A stretch of 64,000 nt of DNA, from NCBI GenBank assembly GCA_013399305.1, contig VXAI01000446.1:186001-250000 (forward strand). The letters run 5' to 3'. This document shows, in pieces, positions 1 through 60,015 of this stretch (positions are counted from its first letter, which is position 1; each line of letters starts with the position of its first letter). This stretch comes from Rostratula benghalensis. Its lineage: Eukaryota > Chordata > Aves > Charadriiformes > Rostratulidae. A program made the translations under genes and the position numbers. Below the pieces are notes generated by a model, which saw only the letters and a list, made by a program, of their open reading frames with translations, made no database searches and was not told where the DNA came from.

Positions 1-1
1 C

Positions 2-168
2 CTGCAACTCAGGCTTTCCTCCCATTTGTAATAAGCAGTTAATTCCCTCAAGAATTTGATCTTTGCGTAGTCTGAGAAACCTTGCCATGTCAGTATCCAT
101 GTCAGTTTTTTGAGATTCCGTAACCAAGACAGTGTGGGCAAGAGCAGCACAGTGTAGTGGTGTTAAAC
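2..168 (-). CDS. NFKBIZ-like gene, ankyrin exon with insert (last in window)
   Basis: The acceptor ctcag precedes position 168. The split Gly codon from the previous exon continues into LTPLHCAALAHTVLV. A longer linker follows, then INCLLQMGGKPELQ, the second half of the repeat. The coding sequence reaches the window edge. If position 1 is the first base of a GT donor, the exon is 167 nt and phase 0, exactly like the matching exon 54833-54999 of the plus-strand locus. That boundary is inferred. Confidence 0.8.
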
Positions 169-6100: not shown

Positions 6101-7434
6101 GAGAAGTCAGCGTTAAGTAAAACATGAGGTGCCTGGCCCAATATTCCTCCTTGAGCAAAATCTGCGTGTAGCAGCTGCTGGCATCTGGCTGGCTAAGTCC
6201 TATGGAGGAGAACTGCAGGAGCTCAACAGATGGGAATGGCAGACCTCCTCAAACTTAGGCTGTCTCAGGAGAGGCAATATTGGAGTGAAAATCAGCCACA
6301 CGAGGTGTGGTTTCTAGTTGAGTGATACTGTTTCTCTTCCCTGCTCCAGGCAATGAGTGACTGACACCCCTTCAGCAGGAAGGTCTTGAATCCCAATAGC
6401 AATTGGTGCGTTTTGAATATATATTGAGTTGTCATTTTGTGTATTTGGCATTGTGCACTGTGCAATTGTCATTAATGCACTGGTAACATTTCTAGTGTTT
6501 CTGAATGTTTAACCTAACACTGAATAATTAAAACATTGGGACCTTGAAAAATGTAGTTTCTCTCTCAGACTGCTCTAGAAATGGAATTAATTCCTCCTTT
6601 AGACTGGTGTTTTGACAACAAATTATATACTCTTTGTAGAGTATTGTAAAGGCCTCGGTGAGAAAAGCTTTATAAAAAAACCCCAAATTGCCAATATGTT
6701 ACCTTTCAAGCTATTTACAGTAAAAATGCTATAAGATGGATCAGATCACATGCCCCGATGTATCCTTGAAATTGAAGCACTCAGTAAAGGCAGTGATTCA
6801 CCAAACGTACTTTCATATGACTTTGTAATGTTCATAACTCAGAAGGGTATATCTATTACCTTACTGTTAGACTTGGAAACTTGCAATTCACACTGTAAAT
6901 GAGCATCAAACTGCTAGAATTAGACAGAAATTATGGAATATTGAGCATCCTTTACAAAACAATAATTTCTGACTTCAGCAGCAGAGCACAACAATAAAAG
7001 CAAGATATGAATAGGAGAGCGTCCTGTACATCTTCGATATTATTGCCACAGTCGCTTAATATGTGCTACTGTTAGTACAGCTGTCTGCTAGCACAAAAAG
7101 GAGTTGCAAGTCATTGTACTTCATCACTCCAAAAGAAGCATAATAGTGTTGCATAAAGAAGAAAATGTGAATAAAGATTTGATCTTACCAGTGAGAGCAG
7201 ACATTTCTTGAGGTTTGCATGAAGGAGGAGGGTAGATCATGGGACTCACAACATTAAATTCAGTTAATCCAGAGTCTGGCAATGATGGGCTCTGTTGAAA
7301 ATAGTTTTGGGGACTGGCAGTTTCACCAGGCAGTGGAGATCCCTGGCCTGGATTGTAGCCGCAGATATCATTTTCAGTGGTGTTTTGATTCACCAGCAGT
7401 TCAGAACTCGTGCAGGCTGTTTGCAACATTACCA
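2..7434 (-). CDS. NFKBIZ-like OCA plus ankyrin nuclear I-kappa-B protein (partial, 3' end off window)
   Basis: Seven exons on the minus strand join in frame: 7434-7189, 4661-4540, 3477-2819, 1198-1093, 811-665, 458-398 and 168-2. They give about 500 residues before the window edge. In order, the protein has an 81-residue Ser/Pro-rich N-terminal segment, an OCA peptide (RYMGVRVKMPVRELLRKIR), a 220-residue low-complexity exon ending in SFFQFQLHREE and DKLLAPDENGN, then ankyrin repeats beginning LLHKAVAQGRRAL. This order and these motifs match I-kappa-B-zeta, a nuclear coactivator that binds NF-kappa-B p50 through its ankyrins and is reported to bind POU factors through its OCA peptide. The OCA-zone and N-terminal sequence differ enough that I call it a paralogue, not NFKBIZ itself; that is inference. 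The last repeats lie outside the window. A strong pyrimidine tract before 7434 implies an upstream exon that I could not find. Confidence 0.85.
398..458 (-). CDS. NFKBIZ-like gene, short ankyrin exon
   Basis: This 61-nt exon lies between acceptor tttcag and donor GTAAGAG. It encodes VLKNCKNDGVCVEVNLIDHY and the first base of a Gly codon. It bridges two ankyrin repeats and corresponds to the 52-nt exon 54404-54455 in the other locus, with the same start and end phases. Confidence 0.85.
665..811 (-). CDS. NFKBIZ-like gene, ankyrin exon of 147 nt
   Basis: The exon lies between acceptor cttcttag and donor GTAAGC and is phase 0 at both ends. It encodes one and a half ankyrin repeats with TALHLAAEKNQHLMV, SLGANVNEQD and KTPLHLCAENG, all canonical ankyrin motifs. 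Length and phase equal those of exon 52164-52310. Confidence 0.9.
1093..1198 (-). CDS. NFKBIZ-like gene, first ankyrin exon of 106 nt
   Basis: The exon lies between acceptor tattccag and donor GTAGG. It encodes LLHKAVAQGRRALTYALAQR and a NEKDAKNR end, the first repeat typical of I-kappa-B-zeta. The first base completes a codon split with the preceding exon. Length and phase equal those of exon 51443-51548. Confidence 0.9.
2819..3477 (-). CDS. NFKBIZ-like gene, large central exon
   Basis: This 659-nt exon starts in phase 0 after acceptor ctatttcag with SKQSIGQTLKG. It encodes a Ser/Gln-rich, probably disordered region and ends ESLLKNIPVDKLLAPDENGN plus two bases of Arg. The end matches the pre-ankyrin acidic boundary of I-kappa-B-zeta. 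The donor is AG|GTTTCC, a weak match to consensus. Reading on past it leaves the frame open to a stop at 2656, so intron retention would give an OCA-only protein. Confidence 0.85.
4540..4661 (-). CDS. NFKBIZ-like gene, OCA-domain exon
   Basis: This 122-nt exon lies between acceptor ttttccag and donor GTGAGG. It encodes DSGLSSDPPQ, then RYMGVRVKMPVRELLRKIR, then LSKGLDPAYSK. The core G-V-R-V-K-x-P-V-[RK]-E-L-L is the OCA peptide through which OCA-B holds the POU domain on octamer DNA. The equivalent exon of the other locus is 45667-45794. Confidence 0.9.
4662..7188 (-). other. Intron of NFKBIZ-like gene
   Basis: This 2.5-kb intron separates the N-terminal and OCA exons. It holds a palindromic kappa-B-like site (GGAAATTTCC, 4782-4791). 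It also has a C-rich tract (5720-5750) that is G-rich on the transcribed-sense strand and could form a quadruplex. No other coding signal was seen. Confidence 0.6.
7189..7434 (-). CDS. NFKBIZ-like gene, N-terminal exon
   Basis: This 246-nt exon lies between acceptor ctacacacacag and donor GTAAG. It begins with two bases of a split codon (TG), then V-M-L-Q-T, and ends SALT plus one base that joins in phase to the OCA exon. It is Ser/Pro/Asn-rich with no known domain. The start codon could be the split codon itself, the Met at about 7429, or lie further upstream. Which one is used cannot be decided from sequence. Confidence 0.75.
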
Positions 7435-10400: not shown

Positions 10401-10782
10401 TCTAACTTCCTTCATCCCTTGTTGCTACATGTTTCTTTAGTGCACACACCCACTTTAACGGCATTTGCTGGGTTAGGTGTTTGTCTCTCCCTTTTAGATG
10501 TTGCTGTTTTGCCAACTGTTAACTCACCTGACTGTGAAATCCTTTGTTGCAAAGGTTTTCTTTATGAATATTCTCTTTCACATATGTAGGGATTGGGAGA
10601 TGGTGGGCTTAACTTGCACTAATGTAGAAAGCAAGCATAAGGCTCTCCCCTGCCTGTGCTTACGATGTCTGATTAAAATACAAATAAATTATCAACTGTA
10701 TGCATATAGTTGTCTTTAAAGGTGAATGTCGTACTGTGAGGTCTTGAACTAAATGGATGATGAGTAATTTGAAAGGCACTCA

Positions 10783-11270
10783 CTGAGGGGTCTAGAGAAT
10801 GAGTCTTATGAGGAGAGGCTGAGGGAACTGGGCATGTTTATTTTGGAGAAGAGGAGGCTGAGGGGAGACCTCCTTGTCCTCTACAACTATCTGAAAGGAG
10901 GGTGTAGAGAAGTGGGTGTTGGCCTCTTCTCCCAAGGGAATAATGGCAGGACCAAAGGAAATGGTCTGAAGTTGCGGCAGGGGAGGTTTAGACTGGATAT
11001 TAGGAAGAATCACTTTACTGAAAGAGTGGTCAGGCACTGGAACGGCCTACCCAGGGAGGTGGTTGAGTCACCATCCCTGGAGGTATTTAAGAAACGTGGA
11101 GATGTGGCACTTCAGAGCATGCTCTAGTGGCTGAGATTGTCGGGGGGTGTGAGGGGGTGTGGGTGGAGGGGTGGGGGTGGGGGATAAGAGGGTGTGTGTG
11201 TGTGGTGTGTGCACGTATGGTTGGACTTGATGATCTCAGAGGTCTTTTCCAACCATGATGATTCTGTGTG
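10783..11270 (+). mobile_element. CR1 LINE, 5'-truncated 3' end
   Basis: The segment encodes the C-terminal end of CR1 ORF2 in one open frame (10834-11127), with the family signature [32 protein letters not shown] and [18 protein letters not shown]. It finishes with the usual tail, in which TTGGACTTGATGATCTCAGA is followed by TTTTCCAACC and an ATTCTGTG end. It is a dead-on-arrival retrotransposon copy; the reverse transcriptase core is absent. The segment between the frame's stop and the tail (11142-11192) is an unusual G-run expansion. CR1 of this kind supports an avian or closely related host. Confidence 0.93.
11142..11220 (+). repeat. G-rich and GT-rich tract inside CR1
   Basis: Runs of 6, 5, 3, 4, 5 and 5 guanines lie between 11142 and 11183, followed by a GT-rich stretch. 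They sit in the 3' untranslated part of the CR1 copy. The pattern meets the usual G-quadruplex rule several times over. Confidence 0.8.
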
Positions 11271-34648: not shown

Positions 34649-34664
34649 ATGCACTGGCAAAAAT
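34649..34664 (+). CDS. POU2AF1: POU2AF1 exon 1, coding part
   Basis: ATG CAC TGG CAA AAA T precedes donor GTAAGTGAG. It encodes MHWQK, matching the MLWQK start of mammalian OCA-B. An in-frame TAG at 34589-34591 and A at position -3 support this start. The exon probably begins near 34550. The single leftover T completes a Ser codon with exon 2. Confidence 0.85.
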
Positions 34665-43557: not shown

Positions 43558-46500
43558 GGTTATTCTGCTTATACCGGAAACTCTGAATAGGTATATTTGT
43601 CAGCTTTTACAGTAAATTTCTTCTTTCCCATCCCCCAAGCCTGGAGCCAGAAACTACCATCCTTCCCCACCCTAACTCTGCAAGGAGGCCCTTTGAAATC
43701 AGTGTGATGACTTGGGGGTAAGATACTACCCAAGAGGTACAGTTCTGCCTCTCATGCAATCTGTAGCAGAGCTCATATTTGGTTCGCTGAAGTTGATGTT
43801 TTCATGCAGCAAAGGACAGTGAAAATGGCTATGAACAGCTTTTCTGTAAAGTACAAATAAATAAGTTCCAAATGTAAATAAATGTAAGACCAAGATAGCA
43901 CCTTTTTGGTGGCCTTTATTTCAGACCTCCTCTATTCAGCTCCTTTTCTGAGTTCTCAGTATGGCTCAAACCACAGCACATTTTAGTACTGTCTATTGTT
44001 TGCACTCAGATAAATTAATACCAATTGCATTGAAAAAGCAAAATGTGAATTATAGTACAAGCCCTTGTGGACATTTACATCATATGCAGAATTAAAATGG
44101 CCTTAGTTCTCTTTGTAAACTGCATTTCCAAAGCCACAGGATTCATGAGAACGCGAGTAACCCAATTTAAGGTCTCACAAAGGATGTCCACAAAGGAAAC
44201 TTATCAATTAGCATATTTACAGATCAAAGTGCAGTAAAAAGGGGCAGGTACCCACTACTGCAATCAGTGGCTTTACAAATATCGGGCCTCTTCGAGCTTT
44301 GATATCCTATGGTTTTCTTCTGCTATCAATTGCCTCCAAATACTTCAGGTAAAATACGGGTGGATAATACTGGCTTCTGAAAAACTGTGCTTCCTCTACA
44401 TTTGCTTGTCACAAGGCTTTGTGACTGGCCTTTTTAGCTGGTTTAAGCTTTACTTTTCAAAACAGAGCAGAGTTTATGGTTGTAAGCTTTGAGCTGTGTT
44501 GTCAATACAACTGTCTGCAAAACTGTGTGGTGTCCCAGCTCCCCAAGTGAGCCTCTGATCCAGAACAGCACTTAAGTACACCTGCCTGTTCTCAAAAGCT
44601 ATGAGGTATACGTGGAATGAGTTAAATGGCTTTCCAAGTGAAGATGCTTTTCTAATTCAGGTTGCATTTGTAGTTTGTGTCCAAGTGCAGAATATAATGT
44701 ATTTCTCTGGAATATCTAATATCTACTTTTTTTGTGTGTGTGTACCTGGCCAGCAATTGTGTTATGTCATAAGCTAGATATCTGCTAAGCAGTCTGTATT
44801 GTGCACCTGTTGGATATACTTGGTGGGTGTAAAGTGCTGAACGGCAGATCAGTGACACTGAAGGAACATAAAGCGGATACGCACAAGTTGGAGTCAGGAG
44901 GAATACAATAAACATGCTATTTTTGTGACAAGCCTAAAGAAAACAAATTCAGGTTCAGGGATTAAGGAGAAAAAAAAAAAGTAGAACTTCACATGTATAA
45001 AATACATCCCCATAGGGAGGTGTAGGTCTGTTGATAGCTGTTGCTTTTAGGAATGGAGTTTCTGTGTAACAGCAGAAACGCCTTTTCCTTATACTACATC
45101 CTCCCTGGCTTTCCTAAGTGTCTAGAGCAATATGCCTGTTTATCTAGCAGAACATACTCATTACACCCCGTGCCTGATAGGACATGGCTTCTGTCGTTCA
45201 CGTCTGCCTGCACAGCAGGGGAACTGCCAGCTCTGGCTTCCAAACCATCCTGAGTGCGAGGCCTGTACAAACTGTTGTGTTGTGAATTATCTATGAGTGC
45301 TCTTTTGCTAATAAACAAATAAAATGGAAAAAAAAAATAAAGGGGGGTGTGTGCTGAGTTTCTTGGTATTACTGCAGTATCTAACAGCTGGAGGGAAACA
45401 CAAGCATACTTACTTCTGGTTACAGTGTCCTCATGATCGGTCTGTGTGATTGCAAAGCAGTAAAGGTAGAGAGAAAGCCTGTGCCATCTGACGTCATGTA
45501 TGGACCAAAAGATATCATTAGTTTAGGAACAAAATGTTTATGAGTCCAGGCTCCAGCCACATTGACTAGTAGAGCCTGCAGACAAGCAGACTGACACAGG
45601 GATTTTGACTCAGGGCAAATGGCAGGAAAGGAAAATAAATGTCACCTGCATTTTTTGTGTTCTCAGCTTCTGCTCCAGAACAGCCGCCGCAACCTCGCCC
45701 CTATCAAGGTGTCCGTGTGAAAGAGCCAGTGAAGGAGCTATTGAAAAGGAAACGGGGAAATGTTCATAATGCTGGTGCAACGGCAGCTACAACGGTAGGA
45801 GAAAAAACAAACACAGGCAGAAAATTCTTCCTTGGTAGCTAAATGATTGACCAGCCCTGGCAGCAGCTGGTGATACTTTGGCAATAAAAGAAATCTTTGC
45901 ATCTCTAAAGCATTATGAAGGCAACACAGCCTCATGTTATTTGGAAATACCATTAAACATATCTTTACTTTAGGTGGAGTGCTTTTTGGGTGCTGAACAC
46001 ATTCAGTCACCGCTGATTTAACAGAAGGGTGAAAGTGCTTGGCACTTGGCAGGATCTAACTCCTAGGAACAGAAAGTACCTTGGAAGTGAAGCGGCAAAA
46101 CGAGATCAGAGCCATCCTTGGATACCTGCTTGTTGGTTTCAACCTACCTCTATCCCCCCAGAGGGAGGCAGATTGACTGGCTCCTCTCTGAAGAGGAATT
46201 CCATCTGCAACACGAAGTTTAAGTACTGTTTAAGGTCCGCCTTAGCTGAAGGGACACATGGACTGTGGTTAGGCCTCTGAATAGGGCTGGGGTTATGTGT
46301 AATGGCTGGCCAGGCTTAGTTCTCCAGCCCCCTCTGTAGAGGCAAGTAGGAACGTTCAGGCACTGAAGTTGATGTAGCATCAGAGAATAGCTAATATGTT
46401 CCACCCCACAGTGCTTCTCAGGTTGAATTTAATGCTTATGGTCTTCATTCCTGGATATTTTTCTTCTCTCTTCTAGGTGGTTCTGCCCCATCAACCACTT

Positions 46501-48655
46501 CCTTCCTATTCACCAATGGGTAATGTTTCCCTGGCTTTCTAAGTGTTAGGCAGCCCTGCTGCAGGGAAGGATATGCTAAACTGGAGTTTAATCCTCTCCT
46601 GTTTTTTAGGCCAGCCTTGCATTGATATGGATGTTCCTGCCTCTGCCTTGCCTGTCACAGATGAAGGAGCACTCTGTTCTGGCTGGATCTCCCAGCCTTC
46701 TCCCACATCCTTACAGCCTTTAACTCAGTGGACCACTTACCCTGACTATGTGTCCCACGAAGCAGTCAGCTGTCCTTACACAGCAGATATGTATGTTCAG
46801 CCTGTGTGTCCCAGTTACACACTGGTTGGACCTTCATCTGTTCTGACTTACACTTCTCAACCGCTGATCACCAATTTTGCAGTAAGTCAAAAATACCTAG
46901 GTATAAATGACAGCAATTTCCCCACTTTAGAGCAAGAGCCACAGGGTGTACTGGATGTAATTAGCATCACTTACTGAATTACTATAATGCTGTGTGGTTT
47001 TGTATCCATGCCAGGTAGTTGTTCTAGCACTGAACCTGTCTGCACCGTGCTGGACATTAGTATGGTTTGAGCAGGACAGAACTCTGTGATTGCACTGCCA
47101 TCAGGCATACTTCGCTGCCATTTCCCCAGCTTTCTGCACTCCTCCAGACTTTCCATGTTATTAACTCAAACACTGTGATTTGCTTTTGTCCTGGGAAATG
47201 AGTCATCTCTCATGAAGTCAGCGGCAGAGCTGCCACTGCCCTGAGTTTGTTCAGGTCTATGAACAGTTATTTACTGTAGGAGAATACTGTTTGCAGCCCA
47301 GGGATAATGCAGTATGTTACACTTACTGTTTTCATCACTTCCAACTTGAGGGGCTGTTCTTCAGCTTGGATTTGGAATACCTGAGGAAGCAGAATTAAAG
47401 TAGTTCACTGAGTAGATGTGCATTATGGTCAAGAAATGCCGTTATCTGGGCAAGCACTTAAGGGACAGTGAGCAGAGATCTGAGCAGTACCTAGTGGGTT
47501 CTTAACTTTTCAATTCCAAACTTAAAAGGAAAAGAAAAAAAAAAAAAAAAAGTAAATTGGATTCCAGGAAATATATCCGCCAGGTGGAGCAGGAGGGATG
47601 ACTTGGCAATACATTTCTCAAGAATTGCTATTTACAGATAGAAGAGCAAGGCAAAAATAACACGTAAACATAGCAGAACATTTGGTTTCGGGCTGTACAA
47701 AAGCTATTTGTCTGATCCAAGATGATTCTTGGAGATGCCTTAGAGGAGAAGTGCAGAGAATTCTGTTGCAATTGAAGTCAAGCAGCTTATTTTCCTTTTG
47801 ATGTTTCAGTTCAGCTGCTGAAACTGACTCACCAAACCAGCAACGGCCCATGCCTGCGTCCTGTGGCCCCGCTGGTGAGGAAGGGCTAGCGTTTCAAATG
47901 TGTCTTGGCAGCCTTGGCTACCAGGGGCTGGCCAGTACAGACAGTTGCAGAGGCCAGGAGAAGCTGCCTTCAACCTTGAGGCAGCAAAGTTGTCTCCATG
48001 CATTCAATTTTTGCAAGACAGACTGTCAAAGAGGACAGTTTTCAGCACAGGGTGTAGCTGTCTCATGAGCGTAAAGTGAGGGTAGGAGTGGGAACAGAAA
48101 TTCAGAGGGAACTTGGTGTGACTGTGAGCTACTGGTAGCAAGCACCTGGGACAGCCACAGCCACTGCTCTCATGGGAGCCAGCGTGGGAAAAGGGTCACA
48201 CTAGTATAACGCTTTACCCAGAGAGACAGGAAAAAGGATGTTAAAAGTAAGACTGAGCATCCTTAGTCTGTTGTTTTGTGTCCTCCGCCTTCCCCACCTG
48301 GCCAATTGTTTTATTTTGTCTTATTTATCTTCTATTTTAACAGCCCCGAAGCACCACCCCGGCTGTAGTGCCTCAGCTCGAGGTGACGGATCAGCAGCCA
48401 CCACTCACATACTTCCCATGGGCACAGCCCCTCTCTGCACTGCCAGCTTCCACTTTGCAGTACCAGCCGGCCTCTTCCACGCTTTCTGGGCCACAGTTTG
48501 TGCCCTTGCCGATCTCCATTCCTGAACCAGCCCCCCAGGAGCTGGAGGATGCCAGACGAGTCATTGGCACACTGCCCATTGAGAAGCTGCTTCTAGAAGA
48601 TGAAGACAATGATACGTATGTTTTAAACCATGCTCTGTCTGTTGAAGGGCTTTAG
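34649..48655 (+). CDS. POU2AF1: POU2AF1 (OCA-B/BOB.1/OBF-1), classical 256-residue form
   Basis: Join 34649-34664, 45667-45794, 46477-46519, 46610-46881 and 48344-48655. All junctions keep frame, giving 256 residues, the length I recall for human OCA-B. The N-terminus MHWQKSSAPEQ leads into the OCA peptide RPYQGVRVKEPVKELLKRKR (residues 16-35), which clamps the POU domain of Oct1/Oct2 on octamer DNA. The rest is a Pro/Ser/Thr-rich activation region with family blocks such as VVLPHQPL, EGALCSGWISQPSPTSLQPL, YTADMYVQPVCPSYTLVGPS and PLTYFPWAQPLS. It ends TYVLNHALSVEGL and a TAG stop. The product is a B-cell nuclear coactivator needed for germinal centres in mammals. In this form the final exon runs through a strong splice donor at 48616 and uses it as coding sequence. 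Confidence 0.95.
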
Positions 48656-51600
48656 GTTGCACATCTGGGGCCTGATCCTCAATATTCCGCCTGGCACCAC
48701 AGTGAGTTTTGAGTACAGAGGAAAAGCACGCTGGAGGGTGGGGTGGAAACTTTACTTGTGATTTCAGTGTCCACCTCTAGTGCACCGTGACTTGTGTATT
48801 GTGTTAAGCTTGCTTTGTCCTGAGGCCCAGCACAAGATTTCTCTGCTCTTACAGTGCCTGGTGCCGCTCCCAGGCAGGCTTTTGATACTGCATAGTTCTT
48901 GTGCTCAGTGTCAGCGCGAGGTGACTTTGATCCTCAGACACAGGGTGTGATCTCAAATTGACATATCAGTGTAGCTGTGGCCAACTGTAGCATTTGGTGA
49001 GGGCACACTTCTCCCTAAATATTGGCAAGACCTAGTGTGGTAGGACTCCTTTCCAGAGCTCAGTGTAAATGCCTTCTGTGTGTCTTTGTCCTGTCTGTGG
49101 AGAAACTTCTACCTGATGATCTAAGCCACCATTTGGGGGGCCTAAATTGACATTTTTTTATCCTAAGTTGAATTGCTCCTTTGGAAAATAGGAAAATGTA
49201 AATTGTAGTTTGGTTCTACTGATGCATTGAGAAGACAGGGTCTCCAAAATCTGGACTTCAGCAGGCTAAGAAGGAATTCATGGCATTACTATTAGCCAGC
49301 AATACTTTCGCTCGTTCCCTAGCATTGGAGTGTGAAGTCAGTGATGTTGTGCTGAGCCACAGAACCTTAGTGACCGCTCTTGTGCCTTACTGCTATGGAA
49401 GGTTTCTCTGTGCTGTTATCTTCCAGGCCCACAGGTGCACACATTTTCTTTGTAGCTTTCCAATTTTCTTTCCTGGAGAATGAGTAGCTTTACTATATGG
49501 TCAGATACAACTGTACATCTTATTGTTGATGTTCAGGAGTGCCATGCCACAGGCAAATACATTTGCAGGAGATACATCCCCTCCTAACTCTTTTTTTTTA
49601 TTTTCATAATATACAAGGGGCTCTTAGCTGGTGAACACAATTTCTCTGGGTTTTTCTGCTTTCTAAAGCCCAGGATCTTTAGTGATTTTATTATTTGCAA
49701 GACTAACTGTGAAATAATTTATTGCACTGTTTGTTACCTGGTGTCCAGCACTCCAGTTGCCACCCAGGCAGTATTTTAAGTGACCTTACAGTTTATGCCT
49801 GAGTGAGGTTTGAAGCTCAGGTTGAAAGTCTTGAGGACTTCCAAAGCGTATTTTGTTACTTAATATCAACAAATCTGGAAGACATAAAAAATAGATCTTG
49901 TAAGTGATCATAAAGTTGTTTTGAAAATAGCAGTAGTTCAGGTGCATTGAAATTAGCGGCTTACATTTGCAGAAAAACCCAGCAAAGAAATCAATTAGAA
50001 CGTGCTTAGTTCACCACTGCTTACTCCAGTTTTATAAGTACAAAGAACTCAGGAGGTAAAACTGGGATAATGCAGGTGTGAATCAAGCCTGTGGTTGCCA
50101 AGATTGCTTTTAAATTTCTTTCACTCCAATGTATGTAAATTCTGTGTGTGAATATAAAACAATGATGATCTGTTACAGAATTTCTTTCTGGGTTGTTCTG
50201 ATTAGAAAAAGACAAAATCTTTTTCAATAAAGATCTACAGTAACTTTCACATGGCTAGAGTGTTTTATTTCCTATCCTGAAGGGTAACCCAGCAATGGTT
50301 TAGCAATCTATTATTTCAATAACATATGTACAGGCTGGAACCACAGATTAGCTGTTAGACTTTCTGCTAATTTTGCACATTAAGGCAGACTAGAGGAACT
50401 TCACGATCCAGATACAGCCTGGAGGCGCTGTGTACTCCAGCATTCCTTACTCACAGAAGCACTGCTGCAGTTCAGATATTTGTTTGATCACTATTACCCT
50501 CTGTTGGCATCCCTGGGGCTGTGTGAATGTGCAGCCACAGCTAATGCTGAGCTTGACTGAAAATCAGCCTAGCTGTGAAGTTGCGTTTCTGCTTCCTGAA
50601 ATAGCAAGGTATGGCTCTGGGCTACAGAACTACCTGGGGGAAGAACTGATTGACTACCACCTTCTGACTAAAAAGTATCACATGCTGCTGTCTGGAGCTG
50701 AATGAACCCAGGGGCCTGTAGGGTGGTCTCCTCATGTGCAAGGGGGAATTTCAGAGCTACCTGTGCCCAGCACCCTTGTAAATAGCACCTGGTGACTCGA
50801 ATGGAAGTGGCGAGTTGCTCTGTTTCATTCTCTTCAGCTCCTGCCAGAGCCAAAAGTGAAGCGGTGGAGTGTTTTCCCTGTCCTTAAGGTCCATCTCACC
50901 AGCAAGCCCATAGATTGTGACAGCTCTTTGTCTTATGGACAAGATAAGGACGCAGTCCCCCTCTCACTAGTAGCTTTTATAAAGAAGTAGCGCTGAACAG
51001 GCTATAACTAAACTATCTGGAAGAGGCTGTTTGTTACCCTGGCTAGTGGGATATCACTGATGCATACAAGGTTGTGTCACCCCAACAAGTGATACATACA
51101 CACAGTATGGTACACTGGGCCTCAACATTAGGCTTTGTAGAGGACTTCGAGACCTCCTAGCACAAGGGCGAATCTCACCTGAAAGAAAGTGCTGAAGTGG
51201 AAAGGAGGCAGCGTGCCAGAGCTCAGGAGTGCTGAGGGCTCTTGAAAGCTGCAGTTGTTTTGAGGTGGGAAGCCCTTTCCATGGGAGTGGGTGCATGCAA
51301 GGTCAAGCTCTATGGGGCTATGGCATGGTTTTGTGGAACACTGGGTAGAAAACCCCCGAAGTGGCTATGCTACCCTGCAAAACTTTGCTCCAAGGGTGGT
51401 TCATGGCCAAGCAGTGATTGGTATCTTTATTTACTGTCTTAGAATTCTACATATTTATGCAGCTAAAGGTATGAGGGCGTATACGTTGGCAGCTGCAGAG
51501 CGCATGAAATTACTGCGAAGACTTGATGCCAAGGAACACAGAGGAAAGGTAATATGGACCACTTTATCCTGCAAACAGCAGTGTTTGGGATGGTCTTGGG

Positions 51601-54600
51601 CTTTGTATGACTGTATGACTGACAGCAATTGATGCCCTTAAAACCCAGCTCTGCCTCTCTGTTACTGCTAAAGTAGCCTTGGGCATTGACATGCCTTGCT
51701 TAGGTGCCTCTGGCACCTAAAGTTAGGTGGGATGAGAATGACCTCTTTCTCTTTTCAGCCCATGGTTCATAGAATGATCTAAGACAACATCGGTTCAGGA
51801 ATATATGTATATGTTGGCAGTAGTGCCTGAGAGCAAAGGTTTTATGAACAACAGATTTATGCTAAGAGTGTTGCATCTGGCATAAGCATTGTTTAAAAAA
51901 TGCTGGGCCTTTGTTGTCATCCAAATTAGGGCCAAAGAATACTGGAGAGAGTTTAGTAGAAGCTGGGCAATGCCCCCTATCTCATGACACCATGGGTACT
52001 AAGTGGGATTGAAAACCTGCCTGTGAGATGGTTTTGGCTTATGCACCACAATCCTTGGGATTCTAGATACCAGTCAGCCCAGACTGCCTTTCCCTGTGCC
52101 TTTTTTTATGATAGTGTCTGTTTCTAGACCCTCACATTTTATCTGCTCTGCTGCTTTTTTCAGACTCCTCTGCTGGTGGCCGTTACTGCCAGGCAGCCAG
52201 CTATTGTCTATGATTTGATCCAGACAGGAGCAGATGTGAATGCTGTAGACAACAAAGGGCAGTCAGCTTTACATCTTGCTGCAACATATGGGTATGACCA
52301 AGTTCTTCAGGTAGGAAAAGCTTTTATGGTTAAATTGGCAAGCAATATAACCCTACAATAAAGTCTCAGTATCGGTGTCTTTAAAAAAAACTGTCTCAGA
52401 AGGCAAGAGGTCAGTAAGCAATGAAGGCTGACCAAAGTTTCTTTTTCTATTATGTCATGAATTGTCTTCCCAGGTTACTCTTGTTTCAGGACCATACTTG
52501 CAGCTAACAGCCTCTTGGTACAGAGGAAATGGCTTTAGTGTATCTGTGGGGAAAATAAATTCTTTCTGCAGATCATAGCTCTAAATCTGCTCATAGCAGG
52601 CCAGGCAGAGCAGGCTTGCTCTGGCTTGAACCCCCAGTGTTGTACTGATGCCTCCTCAGAGGCTGCAGGCAGGTCTGGGCTGTGAGGAGAGGGAGCAATA
52701 ATAGCAGTGTGAGACTGAAGATTTTCCAGGGCATGAGAGAAACTAAACACTGCTGTATGGCCGGAATTCACCAGAACTTATATGACCGGATCTTCATTTC
52801 CCTATTGATTCACACATTTTTCTGTAGACAGGGTCTACATCTAAGTCGTCTGCCAGCCAGACTGTAACAGCCCTGAAGAGCAAATTAGCACATTAGAAAA
52901 GCCACTGTGGGAATTTTTGGAAGTGAGTATATAATATGGGAGAGAAGCATACTGGAACATCTCTTAAATGCTTAGCTGTTGGCTATAAAATGGAATTTAT
53001 AAAACGTGCCTGCCTTCATTCATGACATGAGACTGTGTAGGCAGCTTTAATGCAGAGTTTTGTTGCAGCAGCATGGCTGCTGATGAGTTTACCTGAAGGC
53101 AGGGCACAGAGTCCTCTGAGAATGAGGGATGTGTCAGTGGAAGTGCCAGGGAGTACCTGGCATGCTGGCAGTCCATCTCCACCGTTTGTTACTCTGCCTT
53201 GCGCATGCCCTGGGCTGAGTCATGAGCAGGCTGTTAATGTGTAACATTGTGAGTTCTTTGGAAAACAGGTGTTTCATTCATTGGGGAAAAGTTTTACATC
53301 CAGATGATTTCAACAAAGCCTCCCAGAGTGCCTTCGGGTGGTTTGTGTTTTGTTTGGATTTTTCTGTGTTGTTTTTTCTCCTTTGACGTAAAAAGGGAAT
53401 ATGCACTTGGGCTTGCTTCTCACTCTGGCCAAGGCCATGAAATGCTTTACAGATGGCTTATTTGTTTGTTTGTTTAATTGGTTTTTTCTAATGTATTAAC
53501 AGTCTAATCTCTAATCATCAGGGGGTTCAGAGCTGCTTGTCAATATTTGAAAAGACAATGAAAAGAGGTCTGGATAATCTTTCAGCAGAAGGATTCTATC
53601 CTGCTCATTGTCTGACTTGATAAGGTTCTGGAACAGTCACTGCACTGCAAAAATTCTTGGTCAAGATATGAACAACTCACTTTATTCAATAAAGAGTAAA
53701 AAATGCACTATCTGTAATAATAAAGACAAGGAGCTACTTGGCTGCATCCCATAGAATCTATAATTTTCCTAATGTGAAGAGTTTTTTTGCTCTGATAAAT
53801 CCAAGCAATGCTCATCTGCAGATCACTATTTCATGCCATTTATATGCTCTGCATCCTCATTGCTGCAGGCATTGCAACAAGCTGTTGTTTTAACCTGTGA
53901 CAATGCTGCACATCTGCTACACGTTAAAAAGAGAAAGTAAATAAATTCAGTCTAGAATTTCCAGTGTCAGCAAACCTTTAGGGAATAAAGTTTGGACATA
54001 CATGTCAAGGAGGGATTTTCATTCAGCCTTATCAAGAATAACTCAGAATAAATAAGAATTGGTGTTATTGATGCCTTCGCTTAATCCAGGGTGAAAGCAA
54101 GGAGGCTAGCACTCTTCAACTGGGGGCAGTGATTTAATTTTACTGTTCTGAATGGAGAACCTAATAATACTATACTGAGGAGGGGTTTAGGACAATAGAG
54201 AACATGATCATCTTGTGTAACCCTGAGTGTCCCTGCTAGGAAACAGATTCACAGCACTGAAATGTAGTGTCAAATAAGGGCTTAGTTTGTAGTTAAATGA
54301 TAATTATTGATTGTTTGTTTTAAAAGTTTGTTAATGTTGACTGGGTTTTGGCTTGGAGAGTATCCTACTGATCTGAACTTTTCCATTTCTTGGTTGCTTC
54401 TAGGTTATACTGTCACTAGGTTTTCCTCTTGATTTAGAAATGAAAGATTTTGAAGGTAAACCCCTTTATACAAGTATTTTATAGTGGTATAAAAAAATTA
54501 AAAACCATACAGCCTATGCCATTGAGTGATGTTCAGTGGTGTTTGGTGCTGTGCTAAGAGGCCAGAATGGCCTCAGAAACTGCCTGGGGGTGAGTTGTCA

Positions 54601-57600
54601 TAGCGTGCTCAAATGCCACAAAATTCAATGGGGCTGATGATTCAATGGCACAACTGGAACTGTGTACATGCTGAAGTCCCCTAGAAAGTGTCTATACAAC
54701 CTATATGGGATCTCTGAAACCAGAGAAGGGCTTGTGCCTTAGCAGCACATGTGCAGAGATGCATACGCTCTCCTGCCGGCCCTCACTTCCTCTCTGTACA
54801 TCACTATCTTCCTCCCGTACTTGGTTTTCCAGGCCATACCCCACTCCACTGTGCTGTCCTGGCCCACAACGCCCTATTCCGGGAGCAGAGTTGCCAGAAG
54901 TTGACAGAGGAGCAGCAGAAAGATCTTCAGCACCAGAGTGAAGAGCTGGAGTCCTGTATCCACCTCCTGGTGCACACAGGAGCCTCCATCTACAGCCGGG
55001 TAAGGGATGGGCTCAGTTAGCTCTGTGCTGTTTGTCTGGGAACTCTCCCCTGCCCTGCCTTATGCTTGTGCTATGCTCAGGCTATAGAATTGGAGAAAGG
55101 ATGAACTGCTGACAGAAGGACCAAGCCTGTTTCCCTTTGAAGTGAATGCTTGCAGAGTTAGTTGCTGCCATTTGGAGTTACTTTCTTGCAGCCTGAGGCA
55201 AATACTGGACAGTAAGAGGACCACTGAAAGGAAGGAGGTGCTCCACACTAGCTGCAGAGCTGGCCTGGACTTTTCTTCAATGGATTTATGTAATGTCTTC
55301 AAGTTGTTTTGCAGAACATTTCTTATTTTGTTTCATTTTCCTGTTTTTAAAAAGGATGTGAAAAGCAACAAGACAGTTCTTCATTACACAGTCCAGGATG
55401 GGAACGTCTCCTTGCTCAGATACTTCTTGGAGCTGAATGCTTTCAAGTCCAAGGACTTTGTCAACAACAAGGTGAGTCAGGCCACACATGGACAGGGTTT
55501 ATGTGCACATCCACAGGCAGTGGAGATGCTGAGGGCAGCGCGAGAGCTGTGCTGCGGTGGGAGGCTGTATGCAGACCAGATGGAGATGTTAGAAAATCTG
55601 TGGGGTCCCACAGAAACCAGTTATTTCCTTCCAGAAAAAAAGGCCTGTGGGAAGAGAAGAGCAACAGTTTGTGAATCTGAAATTCGTTTTTTAGTTAGTT
55701 TGTTTGTTTGTTTGTTTTTGTTTTTTACATGAAACTGCATTTTACAGTAAATAGATACTTCACCTGGAAAACAGTGACTGGGTTCAACTCTGAGCTGTGT
55801 CGTGAAATGCAGGCGTCTGTCCAGCAGGCTGACAGAATGAAAGTGCGAGATAACCAGAGAAGAGAAAGGACATGGGAAGTGGTTACTAGAGGAGGAATAT
55901 GAACTTTATTACGTGAGTCTGAAGACAGAAAAGGGATCTGCAATGATGCAATGGTTTGCTGTTGGCAGCAACGTAATAATGACAGACAGCATCTTAGAGT
56001 AGCCATGTATTGAGTAATCTCTCCTGTCAAAGATGCCATCCATAGGAAGGACAAAGCTATTTCAGTTAAGGGAGGTGGTGACTCTTTCTGCCTTAAACAT
56101 TATTTGCAAGTTTTCTGGCTCTGCTTGTGCACTGGCACAAACTGGTTATTGTGATGGCTGCCTGTGAGTTTGAGCCTGGAGTATCAAAATATTCACAGGG
56201 CTGACCAAACCCTAACAGCTGCCAGGAGCAGTAACAGAAGATGGACACGTGCCACAGGCAGTGAACCGATGGCTCACATTGGCAGGCAGGTGAATCATGG
56301 GCAAACTAGCTCTTTGAAGCCAGGCAACATCCTTGCTGAGCATGTGGGAGCCTAGGCACTGTGGCAAGTAGATGACCTGTGACTCTGGGAGCTTGAGACC
56401 CCACTTTTGGCACTCTGTACAACCCTGTCTACTGAGATGAAGTTTTGCTAGCATTGGTTCCTCAGTGCAGGGTTTCTGGAGGCACAGCCATTCTTAGGAT
56501 GTATAAAGCAAGCTAAAAACCTCAGTGCTGCTCTTGTGTTGCCCGTGCTGCCCCATACTTCACCTCTGAGCAGATACCAAGCAGTGACACTATCTTGCAA
56601 ATGTATCTGTTTCACCCACCCTTCTAAGCAAAAATCCTGACATTCCTGTGCCTTAGCTGAGACATTGCTCTGCACCATTGGCCAGAGCTTTGGCTCTTGA
56701 CTAGCTGCCCCCTCTCAGCATGACTAAGCAGGTGATTCTGCATGCTTCTGCAGAAGGGTGCCCTTGATCAGTAAAGAACAGAAGGGGGAGGACCAGGCTA
56801 GGGATCTCTATTTTGAGAAGATCTGTGTATTACTTTTTCATTTCATCAGTTTCAGTCTCTTAGCCTTGGTTGTACTCCCTAGAGCATCCACGTGCTTGTG
56901 TCCATCAGAAAGGAATTAAATGTTTTCTATCAACTCAGTTACTGAGGGGAAGCAGCCACTGGGTATCTTCACTTTCCCCCTTTCCTCCCCCCCCAGTTTT
57001 CTGTTGGACTGGAGGAAACATGTTTTGCTTTGTGTATGTGGGTAATAACATTGAGCTTCTGTCTTTCTGTACAGTGAAGGGCTCTATGCTGGCTTTTCAC
57101 TACATTCTTTCTGTATCTTTTTAGAGCCATTAGGCAGGTGCTAGCTTGTCCATGGGAGTCTGCTGTTGTCTCTTGATCACAATCCTATGAGAGCTTCCTG
57201 CTATGATAGGATCACTCAAAGTCCTCAGTCATGTTGGTGAGCTGTCTGGGACAGTGAGAAATATGATGGCAAGGCTGTTTGATACCCATCCTGGCTTTTT
57301 TGCTCTTCCAAGTGTGAAGGAGATAAGAAAACAGGCATGCTGGAGTCCATGTTTTAGCTTCCGTGGCTCACCCACTGCTTGCTGTGGTTGTCCCGTTCCA
57401 AATTCATTTCCCAGTGGACTTCACAATGCAAAAAGTATTGAGGCCTTTGAAGTATTTTTTTTACCTGGAGGATTCCTAGAGCCCACATATTACTGCTCTG
57501 CACCATTGTCTCACATATGCCCTATTAAAGTCAATGGGAGGCTTCCAGATCAGGCATCGTCAGATTGCCTTGTTTTCTTAGCCCCATTTCTGGATTTGGA

Positions 57601-59772
57601 AGCTACTAAGTGCTCTTGCCACAAAGATGCATCAAACAAATGCAGATGTTTCCATTTTAACGAGAAATCCTATAAAGAGCTTGTAACGATCCCTTGACTC
57701 CATGGGATGATAAAATTGACAAGAATCTGCTTGTTCAGGGCTTGTAAAAAATACCTTGTTTGAGAACAGCTGTTAAGATTATTTTTTTTATATAATGCTT
57801 CATTGTCCCTTATATCTCAGTGTTAAACAGGACCTGATTCCTTTTAACAGCTGGAATACGTGTTGAAATTTGTGTCTAACCATTCCAAGTTCGTGAAAGT
57901 GTATGATAATTTCTGAGAGAAAAAATACACAGCTGCTTAAATGAGACTTCTTGCAGACTAAAAATACCTTGCCTTATGCATTTGCTTATTAGGTTTTTCT
58001 CATTTAAAACCGTTACTAGTCATACCTGACTAGACAGGGGCACAGATTTCTACACGGTCTGGTAATACCAGAGCTTTTTCTCGAACAATGCGGCATTGCT
58101 TTGTCCTGCGCCCCCCGGTGGCTTCACAACAAATTTTATCTATCGGTTCTATGCAAATCCCGGTACTGGAATAGCTGGAGTCAATACATTCTTAAGTAGC
58201 CCTTGGCCTCAGGACCTTTCTTAATGACAGTGCCGTGAAAATAAAGCCAAGCGTTACCTTCAGCACTGTGGAAATTAACTAGGAGAAGGTTTGAAGCCCA
58301 GCGTGATTTATTTTGTCTGCTGCAGAACCAAGCCACCTGCAAGCCTGTTTGTGGTCCCACAGTACACAAAGTCACTGAGGGACAGGGGCTGCTGGACCTC
58401 TGTCTCAGCTGGACGACCAGGACAGCTTTCAAAGTACTTCTTAATTTGTTTGTTGATCTGAGAGGACTCGCACAGTAAAAGATGCCTAATATCCAGGAGA
58501 TGAATCTGAACCTTACATATAACCTACACACTATTGAGTCTGCCTTTCACTTCTGTCAAGGTTTCTTTGCAACTTTCTGACATTGCAAGTGACTGTAAAA
58601 AGGGGGTAGTGAAGATGTGTGGAGCAAAAATGAATCTACTATTGTCGATCGTCATGAAGCCCATATGTGATGGGTAGCACTGCATAATGTGTTTTGTGTC
58701 CCTTTGACTTAAATGTTTCCCAGTGAAATAGTTCCTATTGTTTCTCCTGGATAAATATGCATGTTTCAGGGCCTCTGCCCTTCTCTTTTTCAAATAACTC
58801 ATCAGGTCTCTGCTTATGTGAGGGGTTGCACCGAAGATTTAGCAGGGGGTTGCAGAGTGATTAGGAATCTTGCTGATACAGGACTATTTGTTAGTGGTAC
58901 CCAAAGTCTCAAAGCTCCCCAGTTTATAGTGCTCTATCAGGGAGAAGAATCTAAAACTACAAATCTCTCGCATGAGCAGCCGTACCTGGGAGAAACAGCA
59001 GGAATACTCTCTCACCTCCCCATAAAGTAATTGTGTGAATCTTTTCTAGCTCTCATTTCACAGGTCTCTAATTCTGAGTAGGTGGCACAGCTTATCAGGA
59101 GGTTTCTATTTTTTTTTTTCTTCTTTTTCTTCTACTGCATTAGGCACATGGCAACACTGCTTTGCACATGGCAGCTGCATTGCCTCATGACAAGAACCAG
59201 AAAGAAATCATCCAGTTGCTCCTTGACCACGGGGCAGACCCAAGCATCCGAAACTTAGACAACGATCAGCCAATCCACATGGCTCCTTCTGGAAAAGCTG
59301 GGGATCAGGTACATGCTCCACCTTTCTGCTGCTTCCTAACACATCTGTGCACACCGCAGCTGCCTGTCATTACCAGGAGAACAGTGAGGACAAGTTGTGT
59401 GACGTGGGTCTAACCTTGCAGTGGTGTAGGTTTGGGGGTTCCCAACTTGACCAAACACATCTGAGGCTGAGGAGAGGTGTCAATGTGTAGTTCTTCCACA
59501 TAATGGCAGCAAATCTCAAGGGACTTCACGTTTCATGCCTTTCCAGAAAAGGCTTCTGGAACTCTTTGTAGTCTCTGGTATGTATATATGTGTATTTAGT
59601 TACACATATGCATGTATATAAGCGTGTGTATGTAGGTATTGGGATGTCTGCGTGCACAGTTTCAGATGGTGCATTATGAACTTCTACACTTTTTTTGCAG
59701 GTTAGGCATTTGCTGAAGAAAGGGAAAGTTGCCTATGCGTTCATTTCCTGTCTCCGAAATGCCAGATCCTAA
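34649..59772 (+). CDS. POU2AF1: Predicted long OCA-ankyrin form of POU2AF1 (518 residues)
   Basis: The first four coding exons are as in classical POU2AF1, but the fifth stops at the GTATGT donor at 48616. Seven more exons follow: 51443-51548, 52164-52310, 54404-54455, 54833-54999, 55355-55471, 59144-59308 and 59701-59772. The junction after LPIEKLLLEDEDND makes an intact Thr codon and continues ILHIYAAKGMRAYTL, the same layout as nuclear I-kappa-B proteins. The total is 1557 nt, in frame. Residues 1-243 are OCA-B-like. Residues about 244-518 form about seven ankyrin repeats most like NFKBID. The expected role is a nuclear coactivator bridging POU factors and NF-kappa-B p50. Exon structure is directly readable. 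That one transcript joins both halves is inference, supported by phase, by motif continuity, and by my finding no other suitable upstream exon between 48.7 and 51.4 kb. Confidence 0.8.
35745..35788. repeat. Poly-T followed by (TTTTG)n microsatellite
   Basis: About fifteen T are followed by about five TTTTG units, in POU2AF1 intron 1. Confidence 0.9.
39111..39135. repeat. (TTTG)n microsatellite
   Basis: Several TTTG units with one TGTG interruption lie in POU2AF1 intron 1. Confidence 0.85.
43537..43557. repeat. Poly-T run
   Basis: An uninterrupted T run of about 21 bases lies in POU2AF1 intron 1. Confidence 0.9.
45667..45794 (+). CDS. POU2AF1: POU2AF1 exon 2, OCA-domain exon
   Basis: This 128-nt exon lies between acceptor tgttctcag and donor GTAGGA. 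It encodes SAPEQPPQPRPYQGVRVK and the rest of the OCA peptide, then a basic KRKRG and an Ala/Thr-rich end. Tyr18, Val21 and Val23 of the Y-Q-G-V-R-V core are all present. Confidence 0.95.
46477..46519 (+). CDS. POU2AF1: POU2AF1 exon 3 (43 nt)
   Basis: The exon lies between acceptor ctcttctag and donor GTAATG. It encodes VVLPHQPLPSYSPM and the first base of Gly. VVLPHQPL is a near-invariant OCA-B block. Confidence 0.93.
46610..46881 (+). CDS. POU2AF1: POU2AF1 exon 4
   Basis: This 272-nt exon lies between acceptor gttttttag and donor GTAAGT. It encodes the central activation region with DEGALCSGW, DYVSHEAVSCPYTADMYVQP and SSVLTYTSQPLITNFA. The frame stays open 32 codons beyond the donor, to 46977, so a retained intron would give a truncated protein. 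Confidence 0.95.
48344..48655 (+). CDS. POU2AF1: POU2AF1 exon 5, with internal donor before the last 13 codons
   Basis: The acceptor is ttttaacag. The exon encodes PRSTTPAVVP, PLTYFPWAQPLS, FVPLPISIPEP and LPIEKLLLEDEDND. From there two outcomes are possible. Reading on gives TYVLNHALSVEGL and a stop at 48653-48655. Using the donor GTATGT at 48616-48621 leaves a phase-2 end that fits exon 51443. The tail closely resembles the mammalian OCA-B C-terminus, so both readings look functional. Confidence 0.93.
   Translation, partial: PRSTTPAVVPQLEVTDQQPPLTYFPWAQPLSALPASTLQYQPASSTLSGPQFVPLPISIPEPAPQELEDARRVIGTLPIEKLLLEDEDNDTYVLNHALSVEGL
48656..50250 (+). other. POU2AF1: Probable 3' UTR of short POU2AF1
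   Basis: The stop is followed by about 1.6 kb without a further exon. The first AATAAA after the stop is at 50226-50231, with a GT-rich stretch just after it. A long 3' UTR fits what is known of mammalian POU2AF1. Early polyadenylation here would stop transcription before the ankyrin exons. Confidence 0.6.
50226..50231 (+). promoter_or_regulatory. POU2AF1: Poly(A) signal for the short POU2AF1 form
   Basis: AATAAA is followed about 30 bases later by GTGTTTTATTT. It lies between the OCA-B stop codon and the first ankyrin exon. Confidence 0.55.
51443..51548 (+). CDS. Ankyrin exon 1 of POU2AF1 long form (106 nt)
   Basis: The acceptor is tttactgtcttag and the donor is GTAATA. The exon starts with one base that completes Thr from the 48615 donor, then ILHIYAAKGMRAYTL and RRLDAKEHRGK. 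The KEHRGK end matches the first repeat of NFKBID. Equal in length and phase to exon 1093-1198 of the minus-strand gene. Confidence 0.88.
52164..52310 (+). CDS. Ankyrin exon 2 of POU2AF1 long form (147 nt)
   Basis: The acceptor is cttttttcag, the donor is GTAGGA, and both ends are phase 0. The exon encodes TPLLVAVTARQPAIV, LIQTGADVNAVDNKGQ and SALHLAATYGYDQVLQ. These are textbook ankyrin helices and beta-hairpins. TPLLVA is characteristic of NFKBID. Confidence 0.93.
54404..54455 (+). CDS. Ankyrin exon 3 of POU2AF1 long form (52 nt)
   Basis: The acceptor is gttgcttctag and the donor is GTAAAC. The exon encodes VILSLGFPLDLEMKDFE plus one base. The DLE-x-x-DFEG phrase is close to NFKBID. Confidence 0.9.
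54833..54999 (+). CDS. Ankyrin exon 4 of POU2AF1 long form (167 nt)
   Basis: The acceptor is ggttttccag and the donor is GTAAGG. The exon encodes GHTPLHCAVLAHNALF, then a Gln/Glu-rich loop of about 28 residues, then CIHLLVHTGASIYSR. The inserted loop within this repeat is a nuclear I-kappa-B feature. Confidence 0.93.
55355..55471 (+). CDS. Ankyrin exon 5 of POU2AF1 long form (117 nt)
   Basis: The acceptor is tttttaaaaag, purine-rich at its 3' end but preceded by a long T tract. The donor is GTGAGT. The exon encodes DVKSNKTVLHYTVQDGN, LLRYFLEL and FVNNK. SNKTVLH and FVNxKAHGN are NFKBID-like. Confidence 0.92.
55472..59143 (+). other. Intron of POU2AF1 long form, 3.7 kb
   Basis: The intron begins with the donor GTGAGT and ends in a long T/C tract. 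It has a (GTTT)n tract near 55695-55720. The 164-codon open frame at 57203-57697 shows no recognised domain or splice support. No gene is supported inside it. Confidence 0.7.
55695..55720. repeat. (GTTT)n microsatellite
   Basis: About five GTTT units within the long-form intron. Confidence 0.85.
59144..59308 (+). CDS. Ankyrin exon 6 of POU2AF1 long form (165 nt)
   Basis: The acceptor is ctactgcattag and the donor is GTACAT. The exon encodes AHGNTALHMAAALPHDKN, IIQLLLDHGADPSIRNLDND and QPIHMAPSGKAGDQ. This is the last complete repeat of the I-kappa-B fold, with the family phrase ADPSIRNL-x-N-D/E-QPIH. Confidence 0.93.
59701..59772 (+). CDS. Ankyrin exon 7 and stop codon of POU2AF1 long form
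   Basis: After acceptor ttttttgcag, 23 codons read VRHLLKKGKVAYAFISCLRN and end in TAA at 59770-59772. The R-x-LLK-[KR]-x-x-V ending is like that of NFKBID. Confidence 0.92.
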   Translation, partial: VRHLLKKGKVAYAFISCLRNARS

Positions 59773-60009: not shown

Positions 60010-60015
60010 AATAAA
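60010..60015 (+). promoter_or_regulatory. Candidate poly(A) signal for the long form
   Basis: AATAAA lies 238 bases after the TAA stop. Another AATAAA at 61472-61477 would give a longer 3' UTR that includes the octamer triplet. Confidence 0.5.

What the first reader, a model, noticed from the sequence alone, without database searches (positions are those of the whole stretch)
48344..51548. POU2AF1 spliced to an I-kappa-B ankyrin domain in one reading frame
Seen: a GTATGT donor at 48616 ends exon 5 in phase 2 after LPIEKLLLEDEDND. The acceptor at 51441-51442 starts an exon that needs exactly that phase and gives T-ILHIYAAKGMRAYTL. The minus-strand paralogue has the same junction: DKLLAPDENGN, a split codon, then LLHKAVAQGRRAL. 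Known: nuclear I-kappa-B proteins place an acidic D-x-D-G-D-T motif directly before x-L-H. I found no other suitable phase-2 donor exon between 48.7 and 51.4 kb. Inference: the locus makes a 518-residue OCA-ankyrin coactivator in addition to OCA-B. I know of no description of such a POU2AF1 product.
Basis: partly seen in the sequence, partly recalled or inferred. Interest (0 to 1): 0.95.

Follow-up and report, generated by a model that had tools for sequence, protein, structure and literature searches.

The report
OCA-B gene with hidden ankyrin half
In this bird, the gene for the B-cell coactivator OCA-B continues into in-frame exons for an NF-kappa-B-inhibitor-type ankyrin domain, so it likely makes a second, longer protein, seemingly lost in mammals, that would bridge two families of immune gene switches.

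The parts
34649..34664 (+). POU2AF1 exon 1 coding part (MHWQK)
   Evidence: ATG to GTAAGT donor, phase 1
45667..45794 (+). exon 2: OCA motif (PYQGVRVKEPVKELLKRKRG)
   Evidence: Pfam PF09310 matches from residue 7
46477..46519 (+). exon 3
46610..46881 (+). exon 4
48344..48615 (+). exon 5, spliced form, ending ...IEKLLLEDEDND + AC (phase 2)
48616..48621 (+). internal splice donor GTATGT; read through, it encodes the end of Thr, Tyr and the start of Val
48344..48655 (+). exon 5, read-through form, ending ...DNDTYVLNHALSVEGL stop = OCA-B (256 aa)
   Evidence: Pfam PF09310 1-249/249
50226..50231 (+). AATAAA, the only AATAAA or ATTAAA in 48656-51443; predicted polyadenylation signal of the OCA-B form
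   Evidence: motif only
51443..51548 (+). ankyrin exon A1 (ILHIYAAKGMRAYTL...)
52164..52310 (+). ankyrin exon A2
54404..54455 (+). ankyrin exon A3 (VILSLGFPLDLEMKDFE)
54833..54999 (+). ankyrin exon A4
55355..55471 (+). ankyrin exon A5
59144..59308 (+). ankyrin exon A6
59701..59772 (+). ankyrin exon A7 with stop
60010..60015 (+). AATAAA, predicted polyadenylation signal of the long form
   Evidence: motif only
1..7434 (-). NFKBIZ-like paralogue, cut by the window edge: exons 7434-7189, 4661-4540 (OCA motif), 3992-3944, 3660-3617, 3477-2819 (pre-ankyrin), 1198-1093, 811-665, 458-398, 168-1 (ankyrin); same junction phase

Best explanation
The POU2AF1 locus carries seven in-frame ankyrin exons behind its OCA-B exons and is predicted to make, besides OCA-B, a 518-residue OCA-IkappaB coactivator that would hold OCT factors and NF-kappaB p50 together as IkappaB-zeta does. 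Shown by sequence: one continuous reading frame through 12 exons with GT-AG introns, and the same composite protein in databases from cartilaginous fishes to birds. Inferred: the choice is made at the donor inside exon 5. If 48616 is skipped, the transcript ends at the polyA signal near 50.2 kb and yields OCA-B; if it is spliced to 51443, it yields the long form, a composite-terminal-exon switch like that between secreted and membrane IgM (analogy recalled). In the long form the OCA strand and helix would clamp a POU domain on octamer DNA, and the ankyrin domain, capped by helices encoded in OCA-B's own exon 5 and headed by the invariant D-x-D-x-D-T stretch, would bind p50, so promoters with both octamer and kappaB sites would respond. 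Also inferred: OCA-B and IkappaBNS descend from one OCA-IkappaB gene by duplication before the jawed-vertebrate radiation; mammals and squamates seem to have kept only the OCA half here, and NFKBID the ankyrin half.
Against: No RNA read or cDNA joining 48615 to 51443 was seen: made to catch transcript fragments, the POU2AF1-type rows that carry both halves (P0241, P0046) are genome annotations. The four bird-like 'lgn' rows with exon 5 (P0245, P0246, P0255, P0273) begin in the intron, so that search held no spliced bird OCA-B transcript either and decides nothing. The donor ties for the weakest of the 11 in my crude matrix (3.5). Some species are annotated as two genes (OCA-B plus 'NFKBID-like'). 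The fusion clade's support (85/78) is below the tree program's starred threshold. The long form was not seen in mammals or squamates, but only two squamate rows were seen (P0096, P0290), and only 120 of 2786 hits were listed. Platypus, marsupial and tuatara OCA-B keep the T-Y-V donor signature although no long form from them was listed. Binding of OCT and p50 by this protein is not tested.
Confidence: 0.78

Rival explanations
1. Two separate neighbouring genes: OCA-B ends at 48655, and an NFKBID-like gene with its own promoter starts in the 48.7-51.4 kb stretch and makes an ankyrin-only protein.
For: Several bird, turtle and skate records are annotated that way, e.g. P0066 (322 aa) beside P0315 on a contig of the same length in Rhinoraja, and P0278, P0283, P0293. 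Seven ATG-started phase-2 candidates exist in the stretch, one with a stronger donor (50609) than 48616.
Against: No common 5' exon: of 43 rows without GVRVK that reach ILHIYAAKG without the D[TN] junction, 29 simply read on through the intron's 3' end (..CLR|ILH and the like; 14 of these are unnamed ORFs from 'lgn' or 'ena'), 6 start at the splice site and 8 have assorted N-termini. No acidic D-x-D motif in the stretch. There is no CpG island there either, but POU2AF1's own first-exon region also lacks one, so that says little. An ankyrin-only product would lack the acidic motif and the exon-5 helices that fall inside the IkappaB-zeta match.
Confidence: 0.14
2. Annotation artefact: gene predictors merge two adjacent genes, and the reader repeated the merge.
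For: Judging by their names, the full-length records look like automatic models; I could not see their supporting reads.
Against: An artefact would not be expected to give one conserved in-phase junction in cartilaginous fishes, ray-finned fishes and sauropsids, a confident fold across it, and a paralogue with the same layout whose exons appear joined on a short assembled contig (P0128, 594 aa on 2073 bases).
Confidence: 0.04
3. The long form exists (as in the best explanation), but it acts mainly as an inhibitor or modulator of NF-kappaB, as IkappaBNS can, rather than as an OCT-NF-kappaB bridge. This rival shares the splicing and differs in function only, so its odds overlap with those above.
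For: Its ankyrin domain is sister to NFKBID, not to IkappaB-zeta, in the tree.
Against: Long forms keep the POU-contacting GVRVK strand from sharks to birds, while none of 56 NFKBID-type rows has it, so selection seems to have kept it only here.
Confidence: 0.2

Closest known systems
IkappaB-zeta (NFKBIZ), 'dual-use coactivator of NF-kappaB and POU transcription factors' (Alpsoy 2024; paper not held; known here through passages of PMC11393961 and PMC12074568)
   Different: Different gene; ankyrin sister to NFKBID; the rest of the N-terminus is OCA-B; the short isoform is the classical OCA-B, whereas I know of no OCA-only IkappaB-zeta (recalled)
OCA-B / Bob1 / OBF1 (POU2AF1)
   Same: Identical protein up to DNDT; 256-aa form made by reading through 48616
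   Different: The 2026 OCA-B review describes a single mRNA and two protein products, p34 and p35, and has no occurrence of 'ankyrin' (PMC13043367, passages)
IkappaBNS (NFKBID)
   Same: Sister ankyrin domain; 35 of 37 long rows keep a TVKKLLExKR-like helix and 6 of 56 an MHWQK-like start, matching OCA-B exons 1-2
   Different: Lacks the GVRVK strand in 56 of 56 rows typed NFKBID (these include partial rows and one unrelated ankyrin row, P0339)
BCL3
   Different: Shorter match, from model residue 46 only; not placed in my tree

Membership tests
POU2AF / OCA coactivators | OCA motif (strand GVRVK plus helix) | tested here: met
   window 45667-45794; PF09310 451.8 bits against cut-off 25.7
POU2AF / OCA coactivators | binds a POU domain on octamer DNA and activates | not testable with these tools
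   none; inferred from the intact motif
Nuclear IkappaB (IkappaB-zeta, IkappaBNS, BCL3) | full ankyrin domain of the IkappaB type | tested here: met
Nuclear IkappaB (IkappaB-zeta, IkappaBNS, BCL3) | aspartate ahead of repeat 1 that is crucial for p50 binding (Asp-451 of mouse IkappaB-zeta, legend in PMC11393961) | tested here: inconclusive
   the acidic stretch aligns and D49, D51, D53 are invariant in 26 of 26 rows, but I could not resolve which of them is Asp-451
Nuclear IkappaB (IkappaB-zeta, IkappaBNS, BCL3) | binds p50 or p52 in the nucleus | not testable with these tools
   none
NFKBID (IkappaBNS) orthologue | ankyrin domain inside the NFKBID clade | tested here: not met
   window row lies in the POU2AF1-fusion clade (85/78); gar, coelacanth and the caecilian Geotrypetes have both paralogues
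NFKBIZ orthologue | ankyrin domain grouping with IkappaB-zeta | tested here: not met
   the minus-strand gene lies on that side of the tree instead

The most novel reading that the evidence does not exclude
OCA-B and IkappaBNS are the two halves of one ancestral OCA-IkappaB gene. Outside mammals and squamates many jawed vertebrates still run that gene as a switch: a splice donor forced to be weak because it must also be read as Tyr-Val decides between OCA-B and a bridging OCT/NF-kappaB coactivator. Mammals lost the bridge, and the C-terminus of human OCA-B is the orphaned cap of a vanished ankyrin domain.
Probability: 0.65. Interest if true: 0.88.

Novelty: new variant of a known kind. Interest (0 to 1): 0.8.

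Why it matters
[quoted passage not shown] If it is one isoform of an OCA-IkappaB gene, its origin is explained, the link between octamer and kappaB control is as old as jawed vertebrates, and knock-outs of POU2AF1 in chicken or non-teleost fish would remove two proteins, not one. It also predicts that the C-terminal helices of mammalian OCA-B are a relic with a new or lost partner, and that the unverified long form of IkappaBNS (470 aa, mentioned in PMC12074568) may carry a vestigial OCA helix.

Tried and rejected
Separate NFKBID-like gene: weighed and kept as the main rival. On re-checking, the lack of a CpG island in 48.7-51.4 kb is no argument, because POU2AF1's own 5' region lacks one too; I therefore moved that rival from 0.12 to 0.14 and the best explanation from 0.82 to 0.78. 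Orthology of the ankyrin half to NFKBID or NFKBIZ: rejected by the tree; BCL3 was left out because I had no sequence of it, and NFKBIZ proper is represented by one row. Transcript fragments across the junction: one search was designed for this and gave no such bird row; bird-like rows from 'lgn' (which I take, from recall, to be assembled read archives) that I looked at were exon-plus-intron ORFs, so genomic. P0325, which looked as if it spanned the junction (38% identity, 82% coverage), is intron read-through plus exon A1. T-Y-V at the donor as a marker of the long form: 30 of 56 read-through tails matched by my pattern (at least one more, P0310 with TYS, was missed); the 26 others are placental, squamate or unnamed mammal-like rows, but platypus, marsupial and tuatara have T-Y-V without a listed long form, so it is a correlation only. 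Profile match of the NFKBID and POU2AF1 N-termini (6 and 10 rows): column shuffles destroy local composition, so the controls are lenient; the two ends matched separately too (95.4% and 96.1%). Splice scores use base frequencies recalled for human sites. In one search a first pattern counted 24 full-length rows; it missed four, and one search gives 28. My first model of the minus-strand gene, used as the query, lacked two small exons seen in its relatives; one search adds them. Literature: ten searches found no account of an OCA-B-ankyrin product; the library holds open papers only.

Full report
What is there. The plus strand carries POU2AF1: exon 1 (MHWQK) at 34649-34664, then 45667-45794 with the OCA motif, 46477-46519, 46610-46881 and 48344 onward. 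If exon 5 is read to its stop the product is a 256-residue OCA-B ending DNDTYVLNHALSVEGL; if the GTATGT at 48616 is used as a donor, the last codon is split 2|1 and continues at 51443. Six more ankyrin exons follow, ending with a stop at 59772. One of them, 54404-54455, was found by scanning for an in-phase exon resembling the missing repeat; it scored 44 against 21 for the next distinct candidate and had the best summed splice scores. The window is from a bird, judging by the identities.

It is not chance. A search of 5.8 billion proteins (7990 candidates scored) returned the same composite at full length: Anser (91%, 518 aa), Lagopus ('POU2AF1 isoform X1', 518 aa), Gopherus (519 aa), Alligator ('isoform A', 519 aa), and, at 51-58%, sharks, rays, chimaera, bowfin, gar, sturgeon, reedfish and eels. 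Of the 120 hits listed (of 2786 with E up to 0.001), 28 have both the GVRVK strand and the junction (two of them, P0033 and P0059, are short in the ankyrin part). Others are 5'-partial but join exon-5 to ankyrin sequence: 13 by the pattern, 7 by the stricter one. The named placental and squamate POU2AF1 rows seen are OCA-B only (the squamates are two rows); since a full-length mammalian composite should score above the list's last entry (314 bits), its absence is meaningful but not proof. A two-model comparison of the ankyrin domains in 219 rows assigns 99 to the POU2AF1 type and 56 to the NFKBID type, with 7 undecided and the rest without a match.

Both forms seem to be used. Birds have separate short models (P0242 with 134 members; P0249 'isoform X2'), and the tail beyond the donor ends in LSVEGF/L, LSIEGF or close variants from coelacanth and caecilians to birds and mammals, which argues that OCA-B itself is selected; the one cartilaginous-fish tail seen (P0315, TYVTLQ) lacks it. 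The donor is squeezed between two duties: with A at its fourth base (GTAAGT) or in the GTGAGT form it would create TAA or TGA in the OCA-B frame, so a read-through-compatible donor has to be weaker. This follows from the code and the sequence. In my crude matrix it ties for the weakest of 11 donors. The T-Y-V signature stands in 30 of 56 read-through tails; the other 26 are placental, squamate or unnamed mammal-like rows. Platypus, marsupial and tuatara have it with no long form listed, so it is not a strict marker. An AATAAA at 50226 is the only AATAAA or ATTAAA in the intron, and one at 60010 follows the long form's stop; their use is a guess.

Ancestry. In a tree of 29 ankyrin domains the composites form one group (13 rows, 85/78, not starred) and NFKBID another (11 rows, 95/90), each containing cartilaginous and bony fishes; IkappaB-zeta and the bird and turtle NFKBIZ-like genes lie outside (midpoint rooting, one long row, Anguilla). 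So the duplication probably predates living jawed vertebrates. The pre-ankyrin part of NFKBID (6 rows) is homologous to that of the composites (10 rows): hhalign probability 98.4% over 211 columns, against at most 0.9% in 1 reversed and 20 shuffled controls, and both ends match alone. NFKBID of gar, sawfish and pike begins MHWQK or MHWQR and soon has PTVKKLLE or PTVRELLE; 35 of 37 NFKBID-type rows over 430 aa keep the helix, none of the 56 the GVRVK strand. I conclude, as inference, that IkappaBNS and OCA-B are complementary remnants of one OCA-IkappaB gene.

The rival. Some genomes are annotated with a separate NFKBID-like gene. Of 43 ankyrin-only rows, 29 obtain their N-terminus by reading through the intron's 3' end (14 of these are unnamed ORFs), 6 start at the splice site and 8 differ, which is what predictors do when the true upstream exon is assigned elsewhere. 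I found no acidic motif between 48.66 and 51.44 kb; the lack of a CpG island there is uninformative, since POU2AF1's own 5' region lacks one. Seven possible ATG-started phase-2 exons exist there, one with a strong donor, and apart from one 5-mer in an owl model their peptides do not occur in the proteins fetched, so a minor alternative promoter is not excluded.

What is known. PROSITE reported an OCA motif in IkappaB-zeta (PMC12807641, passages), and reviews cite experimental work that IkappaB-zeta binds POU factors and NF-kappaB (PMC11393961, PMC12074568, passages). The kind is therefore known. A 2026 OCA-B review states that the gene gives a single mRNA encoding two protein isoforms, and has no occurrence of 'ankyrin' or 'NFKBID' (PMC13043367, passages). 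A study of the salmonid IkappaB family has no occurrence of words beginning 'POU' or 'OCA' (PMC10299181, passages). Ten searches of the open library found no description of the OCA-B-ankyrin product (calls listed under Tried and rejected).

The neighbour. The minus-strand gene at 7434-1 is the bird and turtle 'NFKBIZ-like' gene (LOC428250 in chicken), with an OCA motif, the same junction phase and an ankyrin domain. A 2073-base assembled contig encodes 594 residues that match it throughout (P0128), while in the window the exons span over 7 kb, so that contig is probably a spliced transcript.

Noticed in passing
1-7434, minus strand: An NFKBIZ-like gene (OCA motif plus ankyrin) lies head-to-head with POU2AF1. 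Its full-length relatives (e.g. P0121, P0157) appear to stop after about half the usual repeats, so the ankyrin domain may be truncated.
   Followed up: partly
P0068, P0072, P0090, P0099 (N-termini of database proteins): Fish NFKBID (IkappaBNS) begins with an MHWQK-like exon and an OCA-like helix without the GVRVK strand: a vestigial OCA motif.
   Followed up: yes
P0096, P0290 (squamate OCA-B tails): The two squamate OCA-B tails seen have lost both the donor signature and the regular acidic DxDxD stretch (DGSNGTYDL, DENTSSAYDL), as if released from the ankyrin constraint.
   Followed up: no
50544-50608: An ATG ORF ending in a phase-2 donor stronger than 48616; a similar stretch is built into the N-terminus of one owl model (P0060).
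   Followed up: partly
10768-11127: ORF resembling the end of a CR1 retrotransposon reverse transcriptase (motif recalled, not searched).
   Followed up: no
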